Shown one piece after another: positions 1-12,668 of a DNA stretch of 64,000 nt. The stretch lies in NCBI GenBank assembly GCA_036924085.1, contig JAVGWX010000002.1, positions 45,254,666 to 45,318,665 on the forward strand. Direction: 5' to 3'. The notes beneath the pieces are model-generated. The model searched no databases. It was not told where the DNA came from and saw nothing but the letters and a program-made list of their open reading frames with translations. The DNA comes from Ariolimax columbianus (taxonomy: Eukaryota > Mollusca > Gastropoda > Stylommatophora > Arionidae). A program made the translations under genes and the position numbers. Numbering within the stretch: position 1 is the stretch's first letter; each line of letters begins with the position of its first letter.

Positions 1-439
1 AATGCGGAACAGTCGCAGAGAGTTTTTCAAGTGAACTATACATTTAACAAAGGAATGAAAATTTTGTCAGAGGATAATTAGACCACTTCAAAGTAGATAG
101 TGCGCTCTGCTACTACATAAAATGTTGGGCCATACCACACGCAAGAACTCAGTTTGTTTTGACAAAAACGATGTATGAATCAATACCTTTCTTGCTGAAA
201 AACATCGCCTGTACAGTTCCCACAAAAATTACCACTCTTCAGCACCAAAATAAAGCAGCTTTTACCAATATGTAAAATTTAATCCAGAATCAGGTTAGAA
301 ACTTGCAAGAATCTTGGCAACAAATGATTAAAAGCGATTGTATACTGCATTGAAAGTCATAATATTTTTTTTCGTGGTCCATTAACACGGTCCTAGGCGG
401 TTGCCAAGATTAGAACCCACGAGCCTCTCTCTTCAATTA
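1..439. other. unannotated flank
   Basis: No gene, RNA or repeat family recognised here. The reading frames are short and closed. Confidence 0.4.
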
Positions 440-876
440 TACTGTGCTCCCTGCTATGTGCTGCGGGGCTGAGACATGGACACTATCAAAATCACTGGAG
501 GACAAATTGAGAGTAACTCAGGCCTCTATTGAGAGACACTTGGTCGGAATCACTCTCCGGAACCTACGTATACAAAAGCTCTACAATTCCGACAGACGAC
601 CATTGTCCTTGGTGAATGACGCGGTAATCTATACAGACAAGGCAAAACATGGATGGGCAAGTCACATGTTGCGATGAAACGGTGGTCGATGGAGCATAGC
701 GACAGCAATCTGGTACCCGCGAGGTAACAAACAAACCGCAGGGAAGAACTCCAATGCGTCGCTCAGACTCCTTTGCTGTACACAACATCTGAGACGCCTC
801 TGGAGGAGGGCTATTCGTGCACTGGACTTCCAGGGCCCAAGACAGGGTCCGCTGGAGACGAGGTTGGGACCCTCAG
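440..876 (+). pseudogene. LINE reverse transcriptase C-terminal fragment
   Basis: A conceptual translation from about 444 gives a run containing CCGAETWTLSKSLEDKLRVT, then a stop near 677, and the similarity continues in the same register with GGRWSIATAIW and a basic tail. The order 'ETWTL ... LRVTQ.S.ER.L.GI ... GWA.H ... RW' is the familiar tail of reverse transcriptases from RTE/Jockey-type non-LTR retrotransposons, after the palm domain. The palm and endonuclease are absent, so this is a 3' remnant. It ends against an AT microsatellite. I cannot assign a clade. It has no host function that I can infer. Confidence 0.7.

Positions 877-877
<1 letters not shown>

Positions 878-940
<63 letters not shown>
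878..940. repeat. (AT)n microsatellite
   Basis: About 31 uninterrupted AT dinucleotides, abutting the 3' end of the preceding retrotransposon fragment. Long YIYIYI reading frames across it are artefacts of the repeat. Confidence 0.95.
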
Positions 941-942
<2 letters not shown>

Positions 943-1380
943 TGTTTTGGCTCTTGTTGATAAACATTAAGATCAAGCAAACGAACATCGAGGATTATGA
1001 TATTGGTTGCACAAGAAGTCACATAATCTTCATTGCGTCTTTTTACATCGATAATTATTAATATACTGCTATAAATTAAATTCAGAACATTGTTGGAGAG
1101 CTATCATGTAGAATAATTATTTATAAGAGCATTTGTGCGTGCTACATAACTCATAGTGCGCGGCGGATGTATTTGATGTGCGCCGATGCATTAGCGATCA
1201 TCTTTGATGGAGCAGTGCCCGAGTCTCCAGGACGTGGCTTTCTTTCTTTCTTTCTCTCCTCTCTCTTTCTCTCTTCTCTTTCAAATACACATACTCACTT
1301 ATACTCATACATAACTCTCTATTTCCCTCTACCACACTTACGTATGCACGCACCCGGGCACACACACACACACACACGCC

Positions 1381-1436
<56 letters not shown>

Positions 1437-1495
1437 CACGCACATACACATATATCTACTGTCTTGATCATGCTCAGGTTCATTACAATGAAATA
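941..1495. repeat. microsatellite-rich spacer
   Basis: No gene recognised. A pyrimidine-rich CT/CTTT tract lies at about 1238-1282 and a compound (CA)n-(TA)n tract at about 1360-1438. Confidence 0.8.
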
Positions 1496-1499
1496 ACTG

Positions 1500-1822
1500 A
1501 CATATCGACTTCAAAAACACCAATGCGAGGGATGGTCGAAAAGTTGTGCAATTTTGTATGAATGGAACAAAGCACTTACTTGTCTTCACTTCTATGTATT
1601 CACTCTGCAAGGTGATACACTTCTGCCTTCTATTCTTCACCTTCCTGATGCCCTGATGGTAGAACTCCTTCATCTAGGCCCAGAACCAGATCTCAAGTTT
1701 AGTAGTCTAGTCATGGACGCCAGATAAAACTACGTCCACGAAGCCGATTTTCCATGTTTGTGACAGGAAGAAGTCACTAGGTGTCAAGTCCGTTGATTAC
1801 GGTGAATGGGGCTCGGTTTCAT
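1500..1822 (-). pseudogene. mariner-like transposase C-terminal fragment
   Basis: Reading the minus strand downward from about 1822 gives, with one stop, SP-STDLTPSDFFLSQ, then EFYHQGIRKVKNRRQKCI followed by LQSEYIEV. The order 'YSPDL.PSDFFLF ... FY..GI.KL..RW.KCI...GDY.E' is the end of mariner transposases, including the catalytic-region motif YSPDLAPSD. The N-terminal helix-turn-helix and the first catalytic aspartates are missing and the frame is broken, so this copy cannot be active. A second fragment of a similar transposase lies just downstream in the opposite orientation. Confidence 0.75.
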
Positions 1823-1837
1823 ATCCGCTCGTTTTTC

Positions 1838-2000
1838 TGACGTCAGGAACTTGATAACTGAACTGAAGACGTGGTTCCGGGCTCAGACGTAATAGTTCTA
1901 CAACCGGGGCATCAGGAAGGCGAATAATAGATGGGAGAAGTGTATCGACTTGCAGGGTGAATACAAAGAGATGGACTACAGTTCACACCAATTTTCAGGT
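1838..2000 (+). pseudogene. mariner-like transposase C-terminal fragment (second copy)
   Basis: The plus strand reads ITELKTWFRAQ, two stops, FYNRGIRKANNRWEKCIDLQ and then GEYKEMDY. This is the last fifty or so residues of a mariner transposase. It resembles the minus-strand fragment at 1500-1822, so the two C-termini face each other about 20 bp apart. No terminal inverted repeats were identified. Inactive relic. Confidence 0.7.
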
Positions 2001-2085
2001 AAGTATTTTAACTCCTTCATCCTCAAGTTTACAACTGTTCGAACATTCTTCGTCCTGAAATGGATAAGGAGGACACTATTAAAAC

Positions 2086-2445
2086 AGTTGTTGTTGTTTG
2101 CGAATGCCCACAATGAGTAGGTTACTCTTGTGTGCGCCTGAAAAAGGGCGTTAAGTGGTTGATTGTCGTATCTTCCCTCACATCGCGAGCGTGCTGATGA
2201 AGGTGGACCAAGATCCTCCAGGCAGTTGTGCTATGATTGGCTTCATCTGCGTGTCGCTCATTATTACGGGGATCACGTCAAACCTCACCTTGTTAACCAG
2301 ACTGTTGTCCTCGACTACAGCCCGTTCCCAGGACGACCATCGAGGAGGTCAGGTGAGGGTCTTGGCCAGTATATTTCTCCTGACCCTGGCTAAGATTGTT
2401 TGATCGGTGTGTTTTGCCTGACCAGACGTTAGCCTCATCGTCCCC
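2086..2445 (-). mobile_element. dispersed retroposon, family A (CAA-tailed)
   Basis: This block recurs at 13288-13445, 16608-16855, 18885-18985, 37275-37620 and 59010-59365. Diagnostic words are TTTGCGAATGCCCACAATGA, CTTTTGTGCGCCCTGAAAA, GGCTTCATCTGCGTGTCGCT and repeated TTGGCCAGTATATTT-like stretches. At its left edge the plus strand has (GTT)n, so on the minus strand the unit ends in (CAA)n, which suggests a SINE or a LINE 3' end read on the minus strand. I see no clear Pol III boxes and no long ORF. Family name unknown to me. Confidence 0.8.
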
Positions 2446-2767
2446 ATTAAAACAGCTAATGATTACATTTTTAACGAGGATTCTAAAGGCGATGAATCAG
2501 TAAACTACAGATTGCAGAGTTTAAAATCAAATGTGATTCCAGCAGTACGGGGTGTCTGAAAGTTGGATCTGAAGCTTATACAACCGATGAACTACGAGAA
2601 CCTTCAGTGTTCATACGTTTTTAAGTTTCTGAATGAGGCCAAGTACCTATGGGTTTTCATGGAGAGCAGAGATGTCGAATTTGTATAACATATTATATGA
2701 TCGTGTATTCCTCATCCTTTTCCCTTAAACTTTTGTGTACCTCACTTTCCTGTTTTATGTGTGAGCT
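2446..2767. other. unannotated spacer
   Basis: No gene or repeat recognised. It ends at the target-site duplication of the LINE insertion that follows. Confidence 0.4.
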
Positions 2768-2780
2768 GAGTCGTTTACAT
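2768..2780. repeat. target-site duplication, left copy of insertion 1
   Basis: GAGTCGTTTACAT, repeated exactly at 5277-5289. The two copies bracket the truncated LINE exactly. Confidence 0.85.
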
Positions 2781-5265
2781 TATACACAGGCAGAGTGAGA
2801 TCAGTTTTGGAATACGGCATTACAGCCTGGTTCACGGCATTCAAATCAAACTTTGACAAAATAGGGCGCACCCAGAACCAAGCAGCCCGTATCATAACAG
2901 GGGCCCTGAAGTCTGGGCGCACCCAGAACCAAGCAGCCCGTTTCATAACAGGAACAATGAAGTCTGGGCGCACCCAGAACCAAGCAGTCCGTATCATAAC
3001 ATAAGCCCTGAAGTCTGGGCGCACCCAGAACCAAGCAGCCCGTATCATAACAGGAACCCTGAAGTCTGGGCGCACCCAGAACCAAGCAGCCCGTATCATA
3101 ACAGGGGCCCTGAAGTCTGGGCGCACCCAGAACTAAGTAGCCCGCATTATAACAGGAGCCCTAAAGTCTGGGCCCACCCAGAACCAAGCAGCCCGTATCA
3201 TAACAGGGGCCCTGAAGTCTAGGCGCACCCAGAACCAAACAGCCCGTATCATAACAGGAGCCCTGAAGTGTGGGCGCACTCAGAACCAAGCAGCCAGTAT
3301 CATAACAGGGGCCCTGAAGTCTGGGCGCACCCAGAACCAAGCAGCCCGTATCATAACAGGAGCCCTGAAGTCTGGGCGCACTCAGAACCAAGCAGCCCAT
3401 ATCATAACAGGAGCCCTGAAGTCTGGGCGCACCCAGAACCAAGCAGCCCGTATCATAACAGGGGCCCTAAAGTCTGGGCGCACCCAGAACCAAGCAGCCC
3501 GTATCATAACAGGAGCCCTGAAGTCTGGGCGCACCCAGAACCAAGCAGCCCGTATCATAACAGGGGCCCTGACTCTGGGCGCACCCAGAACCAAGCAGCC
3601 CGTATCATAACAGGAACCATGAAGTCTGGGCGCACCCAGAACCAAGCAGCCCGTATCATAACAGGAGCCCTGAAGTCTGGGCGCACCCAGAACCAAGCAG
3701 CCCGTATCATAACAGGGGCCCTAAAGTCTGGGCGCACCCAGCAGCCCATATCATAACAGGAGCCCTGAAGTCTGGGGGCACCCAGAACCAAGCAGCCCGC
3801 ATCATAACAGGAACCCTGAAGTCTGGGCGCACCCAGAACCAAGCAGCCCGTATCATAACAGGAACCATGAAGCCTCGGCGCACCCAGAACCATGCAGCCC
3901 GTATCATAAAAGGAACCATGAAGTCTGGGCGCACCCAGAACCAAGCAGCCCGTTTCATAACAGGAACCCTGAAGTCTGGGCGCACCCAGAACCAAGCAGC
4001 CCGTATCATAACATGAACCCCGAAGTCTGGGCGCACCCAGAACCAAGCAGCCCGTATCATAACAGGGGCCATGAAGTCCACCCAAATAAAAGATCTGGAA
4101 GCTATGACTGAGCTACAGCCAATGGAAGACCGCAGAGACTGCAGAATCCTACAGCAAGCGGAACAATTCAAAAGAATCATGGACCACTCGATGCATCACA
4201 GACTAAATGGGTTGGGACGCGGCAGGCTAAAAAAGAAAGGTTTTACAGTCCAGGCAAAAGTAAAGATTAAAAACAATGCTGCACTCTCAAATGAAAAAAT
4301 AAAGCCAATACCAGCATGCTCCATCCGCTGCCTCTGGAAAAGAAGACTCTTACCTGATATTATATGCAATATCCCCAACATCGAAGACAAAAAGACACAA
4401 ACAAAGGAACAGAAAAAACACATAGTTATAAATTACATCAACCAAAAATTCCCACCAACAGCCTGGACGCACGCCTATACGGATGGCTCAGCCAAAGATG
4501 CCATTGGAAACGGGGGAGGAGGCATCACTATAAAACTAAAAAACAAAGTATACTCAACAGCATTTGCCACTGGGAGACGCTGCAGCAACTTCAGTGCCGA
4601 AGCGAGTACTATGAGACAAGCAGCTGAAACCCTTATAGACCATAAGGAGCAGGCAGAAAAGCAAGTCGCCATTTTCACAGACGCCCTCGCAGTGTTAATG
4701 GCGCTCAAGAACCAACACAACAATGAACTTGGTGCTCTGGCAGACTCGCTCGAGCGACTGTCCCAGTGCTTAAAAAAAAAGCACAGTCCAGTGGATACCA
4801 ACCCAATGTAGCATTCCAGGCAACGAGGAGGCAGACAGACTCGCCAGTGAGGGAGGAATGCTGCAGCAGAGTGATACAGAAATCACATATAATGAGACAA
4901 AAGCATTCATCAGGGCAACATACAGTGCAAAATGAAAAAAAGACCACCCTGGCCACATAGAAAGCGATGCCTACCATCAACTCTCCAGGCGAAACCAGGT
5001 GATAATTCTCCGGCTACGCATAGGTCACAACAGAGTTAGATGCCATCTGTACAACAAGTTCAAGATTGGCACTACAGACCTTTGTACTTGCGGCACAGCC
5101 CCCATGAAGGCAGAACACATTTTGTAGTCATATTCACTGTATATCGACAAAAGAAGTGACATTTGGCAACAGCCAGTGTCCTTCCACGAGAAGCTGTACG
5201 GTAGCGCACAGAGCCTTGAGTCGACTGCTGCCTTTGTTAGAGTCATTGAAGTTGAGGTCTGAAGA
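2781..5265 (+). pseudogene. LINE RT/RNase H polyprotein remnant
   Basis: The translation runs from the RT thumb region through the repeat array into a linker (LEAMTELQPMEDRRDCRILQ, comparable to LEKITKLQSMTDRRDCRAQL in the complete LINE) and then RNase H. The RNase H part shows WTHAYTDGSAKDA, FSAEASTMR and IFTDALAVL, with catalytic Asp, Glu and Asp present. The frame stops at about 4809, and the last RNase H motif (IPGNEEADRLASEG) follows in another frame. The C-terminal LCTCGTAPMKAEHIL stretch is also present. Stops also occur inside the array, for example near 3001. Not functional, and lacking endonuclease and RT palm. Confidence 0.85.
2864..4079 (+). repeat. 51-bp minisatellite derived from RT coding sequence, about 24 copies
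   Basis: The unit begins GGGCGCACCCAGAACCAAGC and encodes the 17 residues GRTQNQAARIITGALKS. The corresponding segment of the complete LINE is NKLQNQAMRIITGGMKS, also 17 residues, so the unit is one RT segment amplified head-to-tail in frame. Most copies are 51 bp. A 1-bp loss near 3570 and a deletion near 3740 shift the frame, and one copy near 3000 carries a TAA. Copies differ by a few substitutions (Arg/His, GAL/GTM/GTL). Flanking RT sequence on both sides is single copy. Confidence 0.93.
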
Positions 5266-5276
5266 CGAACGAGAAA

Positions 5277-5289
5277 GAGTCGTTTACAT
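5277..5289. repeat. target-site duplication, right copy of insertion 1
   Basis: GAGTCGTTTACAT, identical to 2768-2780. A single C separates it from the next insertion's TSD at 5291. Confidence 0.85.
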
Positions 5290-5290
5290 C

Positions 5291-5301
5291 AGGTGCAACA
5301 T
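5291..5301. repeat. target-site duplication, left copy of insertion 2
   Basis: AGGTGCAACAT, repeated exactly at 12658-12668, immediately after the (AAG)n tail of the complete LINE. This places the 5' boundary of the retroposed block upstream of the rDNA spacer. Confidence 0.75.
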
Positions 5302-5932
5302 CTGGGGTAGTTGTCTCGCCGCAGCGACTCAATTTCATCCAGTGTTCGTAAAGCGATCTCAGTCCCGCCAGGCGGAGCGATAGCGCGGGCTTGCGGAAAA
5401 CGCTCGCCTGCCTTTCCCCGTAGTGCGAATTGGGTGCGGTTTGTGGTAGTGGCTCCTCCACCGAGGTGCGCTAGTCTGGTCCGTATCAGGAAACGTGGTC
5501 CGTCCCTGGTGATTTATCTAAGGCTTATAGCAGAGCTCGACAGTACGTCTCGCTGGTGGTCCGACTCTCGCAAAGAGCTTGGGACCGGCAAATGGAAAGC
5601 AGGAATCGTTGCCTCGAGGCCCTGCGTTCTCTCCCTACGGAGAAGAAGGGCAGGCCAAATTGTGTCTCTAGTCCCAGTGAAATTCGTCGCCGAGGTCGTT
5701 GGGATCCGTTCTGCACAGAGCGCTGCCATCCCTCCTCGAGCGAGCCCGGTCGGTCGGTCGTCTGGTGCGTGTGGGAGGCCCCTGTCAGGCGGTCCTAGGT
5801 CGACGGAGTGAGGGACGGGTGGAACAACCGTCCGTCCGTCCCGTCAGTCGGTCCCTGCGGCCGTCCCAGTGAGGCTTTTTACACACCCTTCCTCCGCCGA
5901 CCGGTGTGCGCAGTACGTACGTCTCCGACAGA
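5302..5932 (+). other. apparent rRNA 5' external transcribed spacer
   Basis: This GC-rich segment with GGTCGGTCGGTCG and CCGTCCGTCCGTCCCGTC runs directly into the 18S rRNA start, where an rDNA unit carries its 5' ETS. There is no protein-like frame. The identification rests on position and composition, not on a recognised ETS sequence. If position 5302 equals the Pol I start site, this is a full-length ETS of about 630 nt. A short stretch at 5364-5390 resembles DNA at 8827-8852 in the LINE ORF. Confidence 0.6.
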
Positions 5933-7099
5933 TATCTGGTTGATCCTGCCAGTAGTCATATGCTTGTCTCAAAGATTAAGCCATGCATGTCTAAGTTCAC
6001 ACTGTCTCACGGTGAAACCGCGAATGGCTCATTAAATCAGTCGAGGTTCCTTAGATGACACGATCCTACTTGGATAACGGTGGCAATTCTAGAGCTAATA
6101 CATGCTTACCAAGCTCCGACCCTCGCGGAAAGAGCGCTTTTATTAGTTCAAAACCAATCGTCGTTTCCCCTCGCGGGGTTGCGGCGTCCCCACTGGTGAC
6201 TCTGGATAACTTTGTGCTGATCGCATGGCCTCATGTGCCGGCGACGCATCTTTCAAATGTCTGCCCTATCAAATGTCGATGGTACGTGACATGCCTACCA
6301 TGTTTGTAACGGGTAACGGGGAATCAGGGTTCGATTCCGGAGAGGGAGCATGAGAAACGGCTACCACATCCAAGGAAGGCAGCAGGCGCGCAACTTACCC
6401 ACTCCCGGCACGGGGAGGTAGTGACGAAAAATAACAATACGGGACTCTTTCGAGGCCCCGTAATTGGAATGAGTACACTTTAAACCCTTTAACGAGGATC
6501 TATTGGAGGGCAAGTCTGGTGCCAGCAGCCGCGGTAATTCCAGCTCCAATAGCGTATATTAAAGTTGTTGCAGTTAAAAAGCTCGTAGTTGGATCTCAGG
6601 CGCAGGCGGGCGGTCCGGTTCGCGCCGGTTCACTGCCCGTTGTCTCCTGCCCTACCGTCTGCCGGCTCTCTCCCACGGGTGCTCTTCGCTGAGCGTCCTG
6701 GGTGGCCGGCGCGTTTACTTTGAAAAAATTAGAGTGTTCAAAGCAGGCCTCGGCTGCCTGAATAATGGTGCATGGAATAATGGAATAGGACGTCGGTTCT
6801 ATTTTGTTGGTTTTCGGAACTGGAGGTAATGATTAACAGGGACAAACGGGGGCATTCGTATTGCGGCGTTAGAGGTGAAATTCTTGGATCGCCGCAAGAC
6901 GAGCTACTGCGAAAGCATTTGTCAAGAATGTTTTCATTAATCAAGAACGAAAGTCAGAGGCGCGAAGACGATCAGATACCGTCGTAGTTCTGACCATAAA
7001 CGATGCCGACTAGCGATCCGCAGGAGTTGCTTCGATGACTCTGCGGGCAGCTTCCGGGAAACCAAAGTGTTTGGGTTCCGGGGGAAGTATGGTTGCAAA

Positions 7100-7148
<49 letters not shown>

Positions 7149-7172
7149 GCGGCTTAATTTGACTCAACACGG
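5933..7172 (+). rRNA. 18S rRNA, 3'-truncated (pseudogene fragment)
   Basis: The segment opens TATCTGGTTGATCCTGCCAG and holds the universal landmarks: GCATGTCTAAG, GGGTTCGATTCCGGAGAGGG, GTGCCAGCAGCCGCGGTAAT at about 6520, AGGTGAAATTCTTGGA, and AAAGGAATTGACGGAAGGGC at about 7110. It ends in GACTCAACACGG, losing roughly the last third of a normal 1.8-kb 18S. No 5.8S or 28S follows. Sequence up to the break is close to canonical, with small differences such as an extra C near 6189, so the copy looks young. The variable regions look molluscan to me, probably gastropod. It cannot give a working ribosomal subunit RNA. Confidence 0.93.
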
Positions 7173-7700
7173 CCAACACTGAAATGATTGACATGCCGAG
7201 ACCACTCTTCTGGAGTCTAATATGGAACTGGTGCTGGACTTAGACCCCCAGAAATCTGGGGTTATGTCCCCTGTGGCTCGGTTTTGTCTGCATCCAGTGT
7301 TTGATAAAGGAATTGACGGAAGAGCACTATCAGGAGTGGAGCCTGAGACCTAAGTTAACTTACCACGCCAATACTGCAGAATGACTATCAAAAAGTACAC
7401 CTTAGTGGGGTCTAATAGAGAACATGTGCTGGAATTAGACCCTCGAAAATCTTTGGGGCTACCCTTTAAGAAACTTGACTATCTCGCTAAGGGAATTGAC
7501 GAAAGGGCACCACCAGGTGTGGAACCTGCGGCTTAATTTGACTGAACACGCCAATGCTGTAGAACAACTGACAAATTGAGAGCGCTGCCGTTTGGGTCTA
7601 ATAATGAACGTACGCTGGTATTAGACTCACGGACGACAAGTCAGCTCAAATGAAAGAACGCTACGGAAATCGTGTTTAACTCCGCAGATTTCAAATACCT
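7173..7700 (+). repeat. LINE leader subrepeats with degenerate 18S segments
   Basis: A unit of about 190 bp is repeated. The 18S word GGAATTGACGGAAGGGCACC occurs in the true 18S, then degenerated at about 7310 and again at about 7493, each followed by an 'AGTGGAGCCTGCGGCTTAAT'-like stretch. All three copies then share an ACACTG...GATTGACA stretch resembling 18S sequence further on, but with the same internal loss of about 16-19 nt. They next share non-rRNA text such as GTCTAATA, GTGCTGGA and TTAGACCC. Copies two and three are much more diverged than the 18S, so they are older. Confidence 0.72.
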
Positions 7701-8726
7701 GGTCATTGACAAACAAAAGCCCTCAATAAATTCGTCTGACCAAATAGTGAACGGGTGCTGGAAATAGATCTGAAGACAGGTCAGTTTTACCCTACAAATG
7801 ACAGGGCGTTGCTACGGAAAACCAGCTCAAATCGAGAGGAGCCGCAGACACTTTGGTTCACGTACCAGGCTGATAAGCCAAGGGCGCGAGGCTACCATGT
7901 GGGGGATTACGGCCGAACCCTTGAAAGCCGCAATCCCGCCCAAAATCTCAGCACCACTGCAATGGGAGGCTCCTACATGCTCGGGACCTGGGGCTTGCGC
8001 CCCAGCCCTATCAGGTAGAGCCACAGTAAGAGGTCCTTGCCGCCCGCAAATCAAAGCGGGCGGAAAACTGCTTGATACTCACCCTATACGGCGATGGGGT
8101 GCGAAAAACACCAACCAAAGACTTAGAACCTGGTCGGGGTGTCGAAAACAGTAGAGCAGCCACCACACTGTGAACTGTCAAGACTCAACCACTGACCATG
8201 AGAGTTGTCCGCACACCAGGCGATCAACATCTCTGTGACATTACCAGGCTTGTCCTCTGGCTAAATGCACTCCGGTTACGATATCTACCTCTGTACGTTA
8301 TCAGCCATAACTATCATGCTGGACGCAGAAGAGATGCAGACCAGCGGACATTGCACACCTGCCCCACTGTGTCAACACCCCAGGTGGCGGGGAATGCTAG
8401 GCGTACCATCCCTGCATAGAAGCCAAGAAAATAAAGGGAAAAAGAGATACCCCACTCACATGCAAATGCTACGTTTCTGGCAGGACGTGACGATCCTGGG
8501 ATACAGACACACTGGACTGCCTCTCTTCCGGGTAAACCAGTCCATCTCATATATCACATACCATCATTGCACCCTATAGACACGAGTAGTGAAGACTCGA
8601 TAGTCTTGAAAGACAACTTCCATAGGAGAGAAAACTCTGATCGTAAACAACTGCTGCCTTGCAGATAGGCTGGGGACAGCCAAAGGCTAAGGAGGGCATC
8701 CCTACAGAAACGCCTGTTGAAATCGG
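7701..8726 (+). other. LINE 5' untranslated leader
   Basis: About 1 kb without a convincing ORF1: the open frames here are short and show no CCHC zinc knuckles. Words from the subrepeats recur, such as GTGCTGGAAATAGATC at about 7756 and GCTACGGAAAACCAGCTC at about 7810. Near the end, TTGAAATCGGATGCACGGGG (8718) resembles the conserved body of SINE B (CTGAAGTCGGATGYR...), and GGCTAAGGAG (8684) also occurs in SINE B. No self-cleaving ribozyme fold could be recognised by eye. Confidence 0.5.
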
Positions 8727-11700
8727 ATGCACGGGGCCGCAAGCCTAACAAAACAGTGCAACGTAAATCACAGTATGATGGCAGCACAACCTATTCGAAA
8801 AACGTATGGCGCTCATCCTGAGGAGACCCGCCAGGCAGCGATAGCGCCGGGCCCCACGCCTCGAAGGGGCCCACCCTTGACTACTGGTGGTCACCCACCC
8901 ATGTGTCGTGGAGTCAAGGCACATGGCTATGGGGAAACGACTATTGGCCAAAACCTCAAGACCCTCAGAATATTACAGTGGAATGCGGAGGGAGTCATTA
9001 ACAAAAAACTTTCCCTAACACATCACCTGCATGAAGGTAAGATTGACGTGGCATGTATCCAGGAAACGCACCTCAACAAAAACCATAAATTCTCAATCAG
9101 AGGATACCAGACTTTCCGTCTAGATAGAGAAGGCCACAAAGGAGGGGTCCTGATACTGACCAGAAACAGCATACCGAGTAGCGCGGTACCTGTCAATCAC
9201 ACCGGACAAGCAGAAATTGTAGGAGTTGACATAATGGCTCAAGAGACGAAGCTCCGCATTTTCAATCTGTACGGACCACCAAACAGAGACCTATCGCTCT
9301 CGAGTATGGAGGTCAGAGACTCCAACTGCATAGTGGTTGGAGATTTCAACAGCCACTCGGAGAGATGGGGATACTCTGACACAGACAGCAGAGGTGACGA
9401 AGTGGAAGATTGGGAGATAGATGCAAATCTCTCCCTAATCAATAGGCCGGAGGATAGCCCTAGCTTCTATTCAAGAACATGGCATACCACCTCGACTCCA
9501 GATTTGGCCTTCTCCACACAGGACATACACTATAAAATAGACCGCCAGGTGCTAAACCAACTGGCAGGTAGCGACCACAGGCCGATCAGGCTAACCATTG
9601 ACATGGAAGTAGGCCCACAGGAAACAAAACCGCTCCCACGTTGGAATTACAAACGAGCCGACTGGGACAGATTTGCAATCCTGACAGATGGGCTGTGTGA
9701 AACCATCAACACACGAAACACCAAAATGAAGCCCATGGTAGAGAGCCTAAGCAAGGCAATAATGCAAGCCGCCACTGAAACCATCCCAAGAGGAGCTAGG
9801 AAAAACTATAAGCCCTACTGGAATGATGAGTTACAGAAAGTGGAAGATGCAGTAACAAATGCTAGGAACATGGCAGAACGAGAAAAATCCGTGGAGGCAA
9901 ACATCGCCCTCAAAGCCGCCGCGGCGAAGTACAAACACACTCTCAAGCAAACAGCAAGAGAAAGTTGGAAAAATAAAACGGAAAGTTTAAACCTGGACAA
10001 AGAAGGGAACAAGCTATGGAAGCTAGTCAGAGCCATGAACGACGAAACCCCGTCAAATAAACAAATTACTATCAAGCAAGGCGAGAACTTGATCACAGGT
10101 AAGAAAGCCGCAAACGCCTTTGTCGATCACTATGCCAGAGCAAACCACATCGAGGTCCCTGCAGATAAGCATACAGACATTAGCGAAGAGCTAAAGGGGC
10201 ACGAAAACATAAATACGGCTCCTGAAGAGCACATGATGGCCAAACTAACAATGCGCGAAATGGAAGAGGCTATGAGAACACTAAAGAGAAGGAAATCTCC
10301 CGGAAAAGACGGGATAACAAACGAAATGCTGATGGGGCTGGGCCAAACAGCGAAGGAAAAACTACTATCAGTCCTGAACCAAAGCTGGAAAAGGGGTATT
10401 GTACCCCAGGCATGGAAAGATGCAATACTGGTACCAGTACCAAAAACAGGAAAGGACAAAACAGATCCGAATGGATACAGGCCCATAAGCCTACTGAGCT
10501 GTGTCGGCAAGCTGATGGAACGGATGATAAACACCAGACTGATGTGGCATCTGGAAGAAAAACGAATACTAATTCCACAGCAAGCCGGCTTTAGACAGCA
10601 CAGATCCACTGAGGACCAGGTCATCCTCATAGCCCAGGAGATAGAAGATGCCTACCAGGCACAGAAACACACAGTAGCTGTTTGGGTGAATCTGGAAAAG
10701 GCATTTGACAAAGTCTGGAAGGATGGACTTAGAGTCAAGCTAAGAAGAAGTGATGTTTGTGGGAAGATGTACAAGTGGATCAACCACTACCTCAAACAAA
10801 GAACGGCCAGAGTCCAAGTACAAGGGCAGATGAGCAAAAAGGTGACACTCGAGCAGGGAGTACCCCAAGGGGGAGTACTGTCACCCACACTCTTCCTGGT
10901 ATATATAAACGATATTACAGAGAATATACCAAGAAGAGTCCATAGCTCAATGTTTGCAGACGATCTGGCTATGTGGACCTCTGAAAAGAATCTCACCATA
11001 GCAAGAAATCGGATGCAAACGGCCCTAACATCGCTGGAAGAGTGGGCGAACTCATGGCTGGTCAAAATAAACGAGGAGAAAACCACGTGCACAATATTCT
11101 CGCTCTCATTAAAACCCCAAAGTACCAAATTAAGCCTAAATGGCAAAATCCTGCAGCCAAACGACAACCCAACCTATCTGGGAGTCACATTTGATCGGCG
11201 CATGACATGGAAAAGTCAGATTGAGAGAAACCGAATGAAAGCCAGAGAAAGAATGGCGATCATGAGGAAACTTGCTGGCACAAGCTGGGGAGCAGACGAA
11301 GGCATACTAAAGAAACTGTACACTGGAAGAGTGAGACCAGTTCTCGAGTATGGCATCGCGGCATGGACAACAGCAGCGAAGGCGAACTTCGATAAAGTTA
11401 ACAAACTTCAAAACCAAGCCATGAGAATCATAACTGGTGGCATGAAGTCAACGCCAATTGTAGAACTTGAAAAGATTACAAAACTGCAATCCATGACCGA
11501 CAGAAGAGACTGCAGAGCCCAGCTGCAGTCAGAGAAACTCCGAAGACTGACGGACCATCCAATGTACCAGAGGCTAAACAATTTGGGAACTGGGAAACTA
11601 AAGCGGAGAAACTTTGCAGAAATAGCCAAAGCAAAGATGCACGAAGATCCCATAAACGCACTAACAACACCAAAACCCATCACTACTGTACGAAAACCTA

Positions 11701-12635
11701 CTTGGAGGCAGGATATATTTCCAGAGGTGGTAGAAAATATACCAGGTATTGCAAACAAAAACTGCCAGACCGAAAAAGAAAGGAGAGACACTACCTTAAG
11801 CTTCATAACGAAAAGCTACCCAAGCATGGACTGGACCCATGCATACACCGACGGTTCTGTAACAAACACTACACAGAACGGAGGGGCAGGAGCATTCCTG
11901 AACCTACCAAATGGCAGAAAAATAACACTGTCATTCGCTACTGGTAAGTACACGAGCAATTTCAGAGCAGAGGCAGAGGCACTGAGGGCGGCAGTGGAAG
12001 AAATGGTAACACACAGTGAAAATGAGAGCCATATAGTCCTGCTGACAGATGCTCTCGAAGTAGTCACAGCGCTAAAAAGCCAGAAAAACACTGAGCTTAA
12101 TGACTTAAGAGCAGCACTCTGCAAACTGTGCCAACAGTCCGCACCAAAAAGGGTAGTGGTACAGTGGGTTCCGTCACACTGCAACATCCAAGGCAACGAG
12201 GAGGCAGACAGACTGGCAAAAGAAGGTGCAAGGCTACCACAAATAGATACCAGTATGACGTACGAAGAGTCAAAACGGCTTATCAAAGCCAGGTACATGT
12301 CCAAATGGGAAACCGAACATACTGGTTACACCAAAAACGATGCCTTTTACCAGTTGAACCGAAGAGAGCAGGTCGTTGTCTTCAGACTTCGCACTGGCCA
12401 CAACAGACTGAGGTACCACCTCTTCAACAAATTGAAGATAGGGTGTACCGACGAATGCCCGTGCGGTACTGGTAAAATGACCACTGAACATCTGCTGCAG
12501 AACTGCCCGACATACGAGGATCAGAGAGAGCAGATGTGGCCATTGCCAGTGGAACTGCAAGACAAGCTCTATGGTAGTGGCGAGAGTCTCAGGATGACCG
12601 CCGCTTTTTTCGAGAAAATAATGGTTACTGTCTGA
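8727..12635 (+). CDS. I-like LINE ORF2: AP endonuclease, reverse transcriptase, RNase H
   Basis: The ORF has 1302 residues and is uninterrupted. Residues about 80-290 form an apurinic-type endonuclease: ILQWNAEG with Asn86, IQETH with Glu113, Tyr182, VGDFNSH with Asp206/Asn208 and GSDHRPI with Asp283/His284. RT spans about 500-800, with SPGKDGI, AGFRQHRSTEDQ, GVPQGGVLSPTLF and FADD at 743-746. Motif A reads VNLEKAFD: Asn655 stands where non-LTR RTs carry the first catalytic Asp. RNase H (about 1030-1170) keeps Asp1042, Glu1082/1084, Asp1108 and Asp1161. A cysteine-rich CTDECPCGTG...H...C motif starts at 1240. The domain set fits the I group of LINEs; ORF1 is absent. The start codon is the first Met of the frame, and the true start could be the nearby Met at 8775 or 8778. 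Probably catalytically dead because of Asn655. Confidence 0.93.
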   Translation: MHGAASLTKQCNVNHSMMAAQPIRKTYGAHPEETRQAAIAPGPTPRRGPPLTTGGHPPMCRGVKAHGYGETTIGQNLKTLRILQWNAEGVINKKLSLTHHLHEGKIDVACIQETHLNKNHKFSIRGYQTFRLDREGHKGGVLILTRNSIPSSAVPVNHTGQAEIVGVDIMAQETKLRIFNLYGPPNRDLSLSSMEVRDSNCIVVGDFNSHSERWGYSDTDSRGDEVEDWEIDANLSLINRPEDSPSFYSRTWHTTSTPDLAFSTQDIHYKIDRQVLNQLAGSDHRPIRLTIDMEVGPQETKPLPRWNYKRADWDRFAILTDGLCETINTRNTKMKPMVESLSKAIMQAATETIPRGARKNYKPYWNDELQKVEDAVTNARNMAEREKSVEANIALKAAAAKYKHTLKQTARESWKNKTESLNLDKEGNKLWKLVRAMNDETPSNKQITIKQGENLITGKKAANAFVDHYARANHIEVPADKHTDISEELKGHENINTAPEEHMMAKLTMREMEEAMRTLKRRKSPGKDGITNEMLMGLGQTAKEKLLSVLNQSWKRGIVPQAWKDAILVPVPKTGKDKTDPNGYRPISLLSCVGKLMERMINTRLMWHLEEKRILIPQQAGFRQHRSTEDQVILIAQEIEDAYQAQKHTVAVWVNLEKAFDKVWKDGLRVKLRRSDVCGKMYKWINHYLKQRTARVQVQGQMSKKVTLEQGVPQGGVLSPTLFLVYINDITENIPRRVHSSMFADDLAMWTSEKNLTIARNRMQTALTSLEEWANSWLVKINEEKTTCTIFSLSLKPQSTKLSLNGKILQPNDNPTYLGVTFDRRMTWKSQIERNRMKARERMAIMRKLAGTSWGADEGILKKLYTGRVRPVLEYGIAAWTTAAKANFDKVNKLQNQAMRIITGGMKSTPIVELEKITKLQSMTDRRDCRAQLQSEKLRRLTDHPMYQRLNNLGTGKLKRRNFAEIAKAKMHEDPINALTTPKPITTVRKPTWRQDIFPEVVENIPGIANKNCQTEKERRDTTLSFITKSYPSMDWTHAYTDGSVTNTTQNGGAGAFLNLPNGRKITLSFATGKYTSNFRAEAEALRAAVEEMVTHSENESHIVLLTDALEVVTALKSQKNTELNDLRAALCKLCQQSAPKRVVVQWVPSHCNIQGNEEADRLAKEGARLPQIDTSMTYEESKRLIKARYMSKWETEHTGYTKNDAFYQLNRREQVVVFRLRTGHNRLRYHLFNKLKIGCTDECPCGTGKMTTEHLLQNCPTYEDQREQMWPLPVELQDKLYGSGESLRMTAAFFEKIMVTV

Positions 12636-12668
12636 CTGTGTACGCAGAAGAAGAAGAAGGTGCAACAT
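12636..12668 (+). other. LINE 3' end: (AAG)n tail and right TSD
   Basis: The stop codon is followed by about 20 nt and GCAGAAGAAGAAGA, then AGGTGCAACAT (12658-12668), the second copy of the 5291-5301 duplication. A truncated relative at 56826-57910 ends in the same kind of (GAA)n tail, so this is the family's natural 3' terminus. Confidence 0.8.

What the first reader, a model, noticed from the sequence alone, without database searches (positions are those of the whole stretch)
5291..12668. Retroposed rRNA-LINE chimera: ETS + 18S + retrotransposon inserted as one unit
Seen: AGGTGCAACAT at 5291-5301 recurs exactly at 12658-12668, immediately after the LINE's (AAG)n tail. Between the two copies lie apparent 5' ETS, 18S nucleotides 1-1240, leader, an intact 1302-codon ORF and tail. 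Known: LINEs make target-site duplications around the newly inserted cDNA, and several non-LTR families live in rRNA genes and are co-transcribed with rRNA. Inference: a Pol I transcript that began at the rDNA promoter ran through 18S into a LINE lodged there, and the full transcript was copied into a non-rDNA site. If so, position 5302 marks the rRNA transcription start. The alternative is equally interesting: a LINE lineage that has permanently captured rDNA 5' sequence, possibly a Pol I leader.
Basis: partly seen in the sequence, partly recalled or inferred. Interest (0 to 1): 0.92.

Follow-up and report, generated by a model that had tools for sequence, protein, structure and literature searches.

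The report
LINE wearing a ribosomal-RNA head
In this animal genome (probably a mollusc's), a family of jumping genes present in dozens of near-identical scattered copies carries the front half of the ribosomal-RNA precursor as its own front end, likely picked up again and again when its copying enzyme hopped onto that RNA, which would make it a mobile element that borrows its 5' end from one of the host's most abundant transcripts.

Summary
In detail: ETS, 18S nt 1-1240, leader, LINE ORF and (AAG)n tail form one insertion with a target-site duplication. The 5' end is 5300, not 5302, and it is not a single event: the genome holds at least 79 mapped places with this junction or ETS. Of 18 independent copies fetched, 11 start within 8 nt of 5300; 9 of 11 testable full-length units (window included) have their own TSD. 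Native rDNA matches from exactly 5300. The leader is a mosaic of old, diverged 18S and 28S pieces ending at the 28S 3' end. Other subfamilies join other pre-rRNA positions to diverged LINE bodies; heads show fewer mismatches to rDNA than bodies to the window body in 12 of 12. ETS types reassort against LINE bodies, and no 18S variant is shared between copies. Best reading: the reverse transcriptase repeatedly switched from the LINE leader onto pre-rRNA and ran off its 5' end. A LINE lodged in 18S was not seen (5 of 20 sampled units readable). The window copy has an RT motif-A D-to-N change and is probably inactive.

The parts
2781..5276 (+). LINE A: older, 5'-truncated LINE of the same clade (43-73% protein identity in three pieces), beside whose 3' end the chimera inserted; its own TSD GAGTCGTTTACAT lies at 2768-2780 and 5277-5289
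5291..5301 (+). left target-site duplication AGGTGCAACAT (AT at 5300-5301 is also the element's first two bases)
5300..5932 (+). 5' ETS of the host pre-rRNA, starting at the likely Pol I +1
   Evidence: 11 of 18 independent copies start here or within 8 nt
5933..7172 (+). 18S rRNA nt 1-1240, with three window-only changes (6079, 6619, 6792)
7173..7304 (+). leader unit 1: diverged 18S (resuming after a gap relative to host 18S) plus a 28S-like fragment
7305..7487 (+). leader unit 2: diverged 18S (from TAAAGGAATTGACGG) plus a 28S-like fragment
7488..7700 (+). leader unit 3: diverged 18S plus a 28S-like fragment; right border approximate
7701..8212 (+). diverged 3' part of 28S rRNA running to the mature 28S 3' end (left border approximate; alignment firm from 7743)
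   Evidence: (LSU 3005-3399, 66.9 bits)
8213..8726 (+). LINE leader without recognised rRNA
   Evidence: shared with older subfamilies
8727..12635 (+). LINE ORF: APE endonuclease, RT, RNase H; family alignment suggests a start at the MM of about 8775; residue 655 (RT motif A) is N where the 18 other copies have D
12636..12659 (+). 3' end and (AAG)n tail
12658..12668 (+). right target-site duplication AGGTGCAACAT (first two bases shared with the tail)

Best explanation
The unit at 5300-12659 is one copy of an amplified LINE family whose 5' leader opens with host pre-rRNA (5' ETS from the likely Pol I start, then 18S nt 1-1240), a head that was likely acquired, and is likely renewed, by the LINE reverse transcriptase switching template from its own rRNA-like leader onto pre-rRNA. 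Shown: amplification, TSDs, a common 5' end at 5300, near-identity of the head to native rDNA, unrelated sequence upstream of 5300 in the full-length copies read, several different pre-rRNA/LINE junctions in other subfamilies, heads less diverged than bodies, and reassortment of ETS types against bodies. Inferred: during target-primed reverse transcription the enzyme copies ORF and leader, meets the old 18S-like monomers, hops onto an 18S/pre-rRNA molecule, runs to its 5' terminus and stops, so new copies end at +1. An older jump onto the 3' end of mature 28S would have founded the leader; tandem duplication or further jumps would have made the 18S-28S monomers. Once 18S nt 1-1240 was on board, it would serve as a long homology bridge for seamless renewal of the 5' part. 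Not known: where the body RNA starts, and whether Pol I ever transcribes a LINE copy.
For: Junction query 7000-7400: 40 of 40 scored places 100% identical over 401 nt (1163 first-look candidates). ETS query 5300-5700: 40 of 40 scored places at 100% as printed (2065 candidates), beginning at query base 1 (38), 2 or 3, on 17 contigs. 20 of the 40 junction copies fetched (18 independent after merging one duplicated trio): 11 of 18 begin within 8 nt of 5300, 7 are 5'-truncated. TSD of 7 bp or more abutting the ends: 9 of 18 tested units, window included, against 4 of 306 mismatched flank pairs; 9 of 11 full-length, 0 of 7 truncated. rDNA contig end L054 matches 5300-7172 at 99.2% and diverges upstream of 5300, where it reads GGAATGTATATT|ATCTGGGG; seven readable array units share that border. 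Two copies fuse ITS1 onto the base at 5300, as if it were an RNA end (L051 exactly; L083 with one ambiguous base). Mismatch rates, head to rDNA vs body to window body: L043 0.46/3.24%, L044 1.07/8.63, L040 0.90/15.80, L045 1.08/6.73, L047 0.35/2.92, L049 0.59/2.77, L046 0.42/2.14; head lower in 12 of 12 copies, less than half the body rate in 11 of 12, with differing junctions. Sites variant in two or more copies: 18S 0 of 1240, ETS 8/633, mosaic 7/1040, leader 5/514, ORF 29/3909, while singletons are similar everywhere (0.13-0.23%). Four-gamete conflicts: ETS x ETS 0/28, ETS x mosaic 42/56, ETS x ORF 142/232, leader x ORF 12/145, ORF x ORF 43/406.
Against: The 7172/7173 junction is the same in every window-type copy read, so that junction itself is inherited (the copies were found by a query across it). 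ETS types H2 and H3 (H3 is the window's) were not seen in the eight native rDNA ETSs read, all H1, so some heads may be inherited in the LINE lineage and exchanged between LINE RNAs rather than taken fresh. Bodies also recombine internally (mosaic x ORF 92 of 203). The copies were found by searching for 18S or ITS1, which favours young heads; in L052 the head (3.77%) is not below half the body rate (5.69%), and by percent identity including gaps L049 (95.0/95.0), L050 (97.6-99.6/97.9), L051 (94.9-98.8/97.1) and L052 (92.6/94.3) show no clear head advantage. Much of the arrays reads N, so donor units or lodged LINEs there cannot be excluded. 14 of 18 copies lack in-frame stops, so a recent burst from few sources explains part of the uniformity. 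L029 and L033 are full-length without an abutting TSD. No RNA data.
Confidence: 0.66

Rival explanations
1. One permanent capture: a single switch onto pre-rRNA founded the window-type lineage; heads are then inherited, transcription starts at 5300 from an internal promoter, and head/body reassortment comes from template switching between LINE RNAs.
For: Constant junction in the window-type copies; ETS types H2 and H3 not seen in the rDNA units read; recombination is also visible inside the body (mosaic x ORF 92 of 203 four-gamete pairs).
Against: No shared variant in 1240 nt of 18S although mutations there accumulate after insertion at about the common rate; the copies' majority state differs from rDNA unit L054 at only 3 of 1873 positions, one of them in 18S; other subfamilies have other junctions and heads younger than their bodies; L019, L020 and L034 have the ETS type of the rDNA read.
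Confidence: 0.22
2. One reading: the LINE sits in an 18S gene, is co-transcribed by Pol I, and such transcripts were retroposed elsewhere.
For: It gives the right 5' end and sense order; ETS/body reassortment would follow from recombination among rDNA units; 15 of 20 sampled stretches read N, so lodged copies cannot be excluded.
Against: 5 of 5 readable units at 18S:1240 are uninterrupted; sequence after 7172 is itself old 18S resuming the 18S alignment, so it does not look like an insertion border; the other junctions (ITS1, 28S, 5.8S, other 18S points) would each need another lodged LINE; rRNA-to-rRNA fusions at the start base suggest jumping.
Confidence: 0.08
3. DNA-level gene conversion: dispersed copies got their heads renewed by recombination with rDNA after insertion.
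For: It would also homogenise the 18S part.
Against: Heads of the full-length copies read end at 5300, mostly with a TSD abutting; singletons in 18S are not cleared (26 in 20,175 aligned bases).
Confidence: 0.03
4. Assembly join of rDNA and LINE reads.
For: Only that repeats are involved.
Against: 40 of 40 scored places carry the same junction on three large contigs, with separate flanks and TSDs in those fetched.
Confidence: 0.01

Closest known systems
LINE-1 bipartite chimeras with U6, U3, 5S, 28S and other RNAs (catalogue in PMC13174262, passages read)
   Same: RNA joined 5' of a LINE in one insertion, often TSD-flanked; sense orientation prevails for 28S; template switching or RNA ligation proposed.
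   Different: There the chimeras are catalogued as single insertions with short rRNA pieces (28S: 18 cases, median 269 nt). Here a 1.9 kb pre-rRNA head from the likely +1 is a standing part of an amplified family, and similar heads recur in several subfamilies. The term 18S does not occur in that paper's main text.
R2, R8, R9 rDNA-specific non-LTR elements (PMC5035012, two passages read); R1, R7 recalled
   Same: Intimate link with rRNA genes; co-transcription puts rRNA upstream of the element.
   Different: They insert at fixed rDNA sites; these copies lie at unrelated dispersed sites with different TSDs.
rRNA-headed SINEs (5S- and 28S-derived SINEs are mentioned in passages of PMC13174262; details recalled)
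   Same: A host non-coding RNA forms the 5' head of a retroposon.
   Different: Here the element codes for its own enzyme, the head is half a pre-rRNA, and it brings no visible promoter.
Mouse L1 tandem 5' monomers (recalled)
   Same: Leader built of tandem monomers.
   Different: Monomers here derive from 18S and 28S rRNA.

Membership tests
Non-LTR retrotransposon (LINE) | ORF with endonuclease and RT | tested here: met
   Exo_endo_phos, RVT_1, RNase_H in Pfam
Non-LTR retrotransposon (LINE) | TSDs, 5' truncations, simple 3' tail | tested here: met
   9 of 18 units with an abutting TSD of 7 bp or more, 7 of 18 copies truncated, (AAG)n tail
Ingi/I-type clade within LINEs | RT phylogeny | not tested
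   Single-ORF APE-RT-RNase H layout recalled as Ingi-like; no tree built
rDNA-specific R elements | insertion at a fixed rDNA site | tested here: not met
   Dispersed sites with different flanks; 5 of 5 readable rDNA units empty at 18S:1240, 15 of 20 unreadable
LINE/ncRNA bipartite chimera | RNA joined to the LINE 5' end inside one TSD | tested here: met
LINE/ncRNA bipartite chimera | isolated event that does not itself spread | tested here: not met
   40 of 40 scored places share the junction
rRNA-derived SINE | short and non-coding | tested here: not met
   7.36 kb with a 1302-codon ORF
rRNA-derived SINE | internal promoter in the head | not testable with these tools
   no transcript data

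The most novel reading that the evidence does not exclude
A retrotransposon with a borrowed, self-renewing 5' end: captured 18S works as a landing pad that guides the reverse transcriptase, cycle after cycle, onto nascent Pol I pre-rRNA, so that even truncated LINE RNAs yield complete insertions ending at the rRNA start site. The element thereby needs no 5' end of its own and leaves a dated archive of host pre-rRNA across the genome.
Probability: 0.4. Interest if true: 0.93.

Novelty: new variant of a known kind. Interest (0 to 1): 0.85.

Why it matters
How LINEs gain and replace 5' leaders is an open question. This genome holds several stages at once: an old 28S-3'-end capture, 18S-28S monomers, and fresh pre-rRNA heads with several junctions. 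It makes template switching as a route to a new 5' end testable by counting. The common start at 5300, with two fusions at that base, also predicts the Pol I start of an animal from genomic fossils. Dispersed near-complete 18S copies could mislead barcoding and rDNA assembly in this species.

Tried and rejected
LINE relatives in viral and bacterial collections: no viral locus; 9 bacterial-record contigs, apparently contaminating animal LINEs at 26-31% identity, without rRNA at Rfam thresholds. No 18S by exact pattern in viral contigs. My first idea that the 18S part is decayed (odd bases at positions I recalled as universal) was wrong: the native rDNA has the same bases. Leader unit 2 shows no detectable 18S continuation past CACG (492 of 1000 shuffles as good), unlike units 1 (0 of 1000) and 3 (4 of 1000); against recalled human 18S none of the units 1-3 beat all shuffles there. 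Junction and copy counts by exact pattern, and a test whether ETS type H2 occurs in rDNA, could not be run. No report of a LINE family with an ETS-18S head appeared in the listings of searches (open-licence library only; titles and abstract starts seen).
Full report
OBSERVATION. The 11-bp repeat is real and flanks one unit. The site is not rDNA: in 64 kb Rfam finds rRNA (gathering threshold) only inside the unit. The chimera inserted beside the 3' end of an older, truncated LINE that has its own 13-bp TSD.

WHAT THE LEADER IS. Between 7173 and 8212 the leader is largely old rRNA. Three monomers of about 183-196 bp each start with the 18S motif TAAAGGAATTGACGG or a variant. The third still scores as 18S (27.4 bits, below the gathering score of 50). 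Against recalled human 28S, units 2, 3 and 4 beat all 200 shuffles for the tail reference; unit 1 does so for one of two overlapping references (36 against a shuffle maximum of 33, and 36 against 37). 7803-8206 is the 28S 3' end (66.9 bits), reaching the mature 3' terminus. After 7172 the sequence does not become foreign. Host 18S reads CACGGGAAAACTCACCCGGTCCGGACACTGTAAGG, the leader CACGGCCAACACTGAAATG: the same 18S resumed after a gap. Against the host's own 18S, unit 1 beats 1000 of 1000 shuffles, unit 3 996 of 1000, unit 2 only 508 of 1000. The joint is thus native 18S meeting old 18S.

NOT ONE COPY BUT A FAMILY. The genome search was first answered. The junction is present at 40 of 40 scored places at 100% over 401 nt, and the ETS at 40 of 40 scored places. 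By coordinates the two lists share only the window, giving 79 places, a lower bound since only the best 40 candidates are scored; two ETS places lie 766 bp apart. I fetched 20 of the 40 junction copies; three share flanks and TSD and count as one. Identity over 7.36 kb is 99.06-99.67% for the nine full-length copies that align in one block. Eleven of 18 independent copies begin within 8 nt of 5300 (ten with ATCTGGGG, L037 eight bases inside); seven are truncated. TSDs of 7 bp or more abut 9 of 11 testable full-length units and 0 of 7 truncated ones (L027 not testable; L029 and L035 have 8-9 bp repeats that do not abut). Fourteen of 18 lack in-frame stops (insertions not counted, L027 partial).

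NATIVE rDNA. Contig C222 ends in ETS-18S-ITS1 (L054). It matches the element from 5300 to 7172 (99.2%) and differs from the copies' majority state at 3 of 1873 positions, one of them in 18S; it departs upstream, reading TGACCCCCGGAATGTATATT|ATCTGGGG. That upstream stretch recurs, 100% identical, in 40 of 40 scored places (140 candidates), on contigs C50 (23) and C67 (17), many neighbours 12.15-12.3 kb apart: the rDNA arrays. Of 20 array stretches at 18S:1240, 5 were readable (all C50) and normal; 15 read N. Of 8 ETS stretches, 7 were readable.

THE START SITE. Base 5300 is where rDNA and the full-length copies part company, and where two other copies fuse ITS1 sequence onto ATCTGGGG (L051 exactly, L083 with one ambiguous base). 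An RNA end at the A of 5300 explains all three. That it is the Pol I +1 is inferred; no transcript was mapped.

HOW THE HEAD CAME. Other dispersed copies join pre-rRNA to LINE bodies elsewhere: L043 and L040 from late 18S (L040 with about 30 nt between), L044 and L050 from ITS1, L045 and L042 from mid 18S, L047 and L049 from 28S, L041/L046 (one locus) from 5.8S into 18S near 6375, L039 from 18S nt 345 to 7194. Counting mismatches only, heads differ from rDNA by 0.35-1.11% in ten copies and 3.8-4.1% in L052 and L053, bodies from the window body by 1.6-21%; the head rate is lower in 12 of 12 copies and below half in 11 of 12. If one head had been captured before the bodies split and then drifted, it should have at least about half the body distance. 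These copies were found through 18S or ITS1, so young heads are over-represented; with gaps counted, four of them (L049-L052) show no clear head advantage. Within the window type, ETS sites never conflict among themselves (0 of 28 pairs), but conflict with mosaic (42 of 56) and ORF (142 of 232) sites, far more than leader with ORF (12 of 145); mosaic with ORF is also high (92 of 203). No 18S variant is shared by two copies, although 49 such sites lie in the other 6.1 kb. Counting clustered sites once (about 26 events by my own grouping of the list), about 5 would be expected in 18S. Each ETS type (H1: L019, L020, L034; H2: L023, L025, L027, L030; H3: window, L024, L028, L029, L031; L033 and L037 intermediate) occurs with more than one body type.

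MECHANISM. I commit to template switching during target-primed reverse transcription, from the leader onto pre-rRNA, with run-off at the RNA 5' end. It accounts for the fixed end, the missing promoter, the sense order, the different junctions and the reassortment. What it does not settle is whether window-type heads are renewed from rRNA in most cycles or mostly exchanged between LINE RNAs: H2 and H3 were not found in the eight rDNA ETSs read.

STATE OF THE WINDOW COPY. Residue 655, the aspartate of RT motif A (motif naming recalled), is N here and D in the 18 other copies and in all 19 aligned relatives (leave-one-out list); the copy is probably inactive. Its ORF is otherwise open.

HOST. Not named. 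The named LINE proteins among the hits are from Littorina saxatilis and Batillaria attramentaria, so a mollusc is likely; the assembly is 2.29 Gb in 401 contigs.

LITERATURE. PMC13174262 (passages) reviews U1-U6 and 5S chimeras with LINE-1 and adds, among others, 18 insertions with 28S pieces, invoking RNA ligation or template switching; the term 18S has 0 occurrences in its main text. PMC5035012 (two passages) states that R8 of hydra inserts in 18S genes. The listings of searches showed no LINE family with an ETS-18S head; most subscription papers are not covered.

Noticed in passing
2864-4078: A 51-bp (17-codon) tandem array of about 24 copies lies inside LINE A, apparently built from the LINE's own coding segment downstream of the RT core (QNQAARIITGALKS-like).
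   Followed up: no
10689 (residue 655 of P0001): Window-only replacement of the RT motif-A aspartate by asparagine; the 18 other copies keep D.
   Followed up: yes
L051 around 1988; L083: rRNA-rRNA fusions: ITS1 joined to the predicted +1 base, suggesting end-to-end template jumping.
   Followed up: partly
G000 C50 and C67: rDNA arrays with about 12.2 kb spacing and two ETS length forms (4 of 7 readable units carry a deletion relative to the window around 5620-5641).
   Followed up: partly
L018 (6377) and L041 (about 6375): An inverted 5' joint in one copy and a 5.8S-to-18S jump in another fall at nearly the same 18S position, a possible RT stop or switch hotspot.
   Followed up: no
G000:C11:54494366-54494766 and 54495132-54495532: Two near-identical ETS starts 766 bp apart on one chromosome, perhaps a head concatemer.
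   Followed up: no
L001-L009: Bacterial genome records, several of them mollusc symbionts, contain contigs coding for animal-type LINE proteins, probably host contamination.
   Followed up: no
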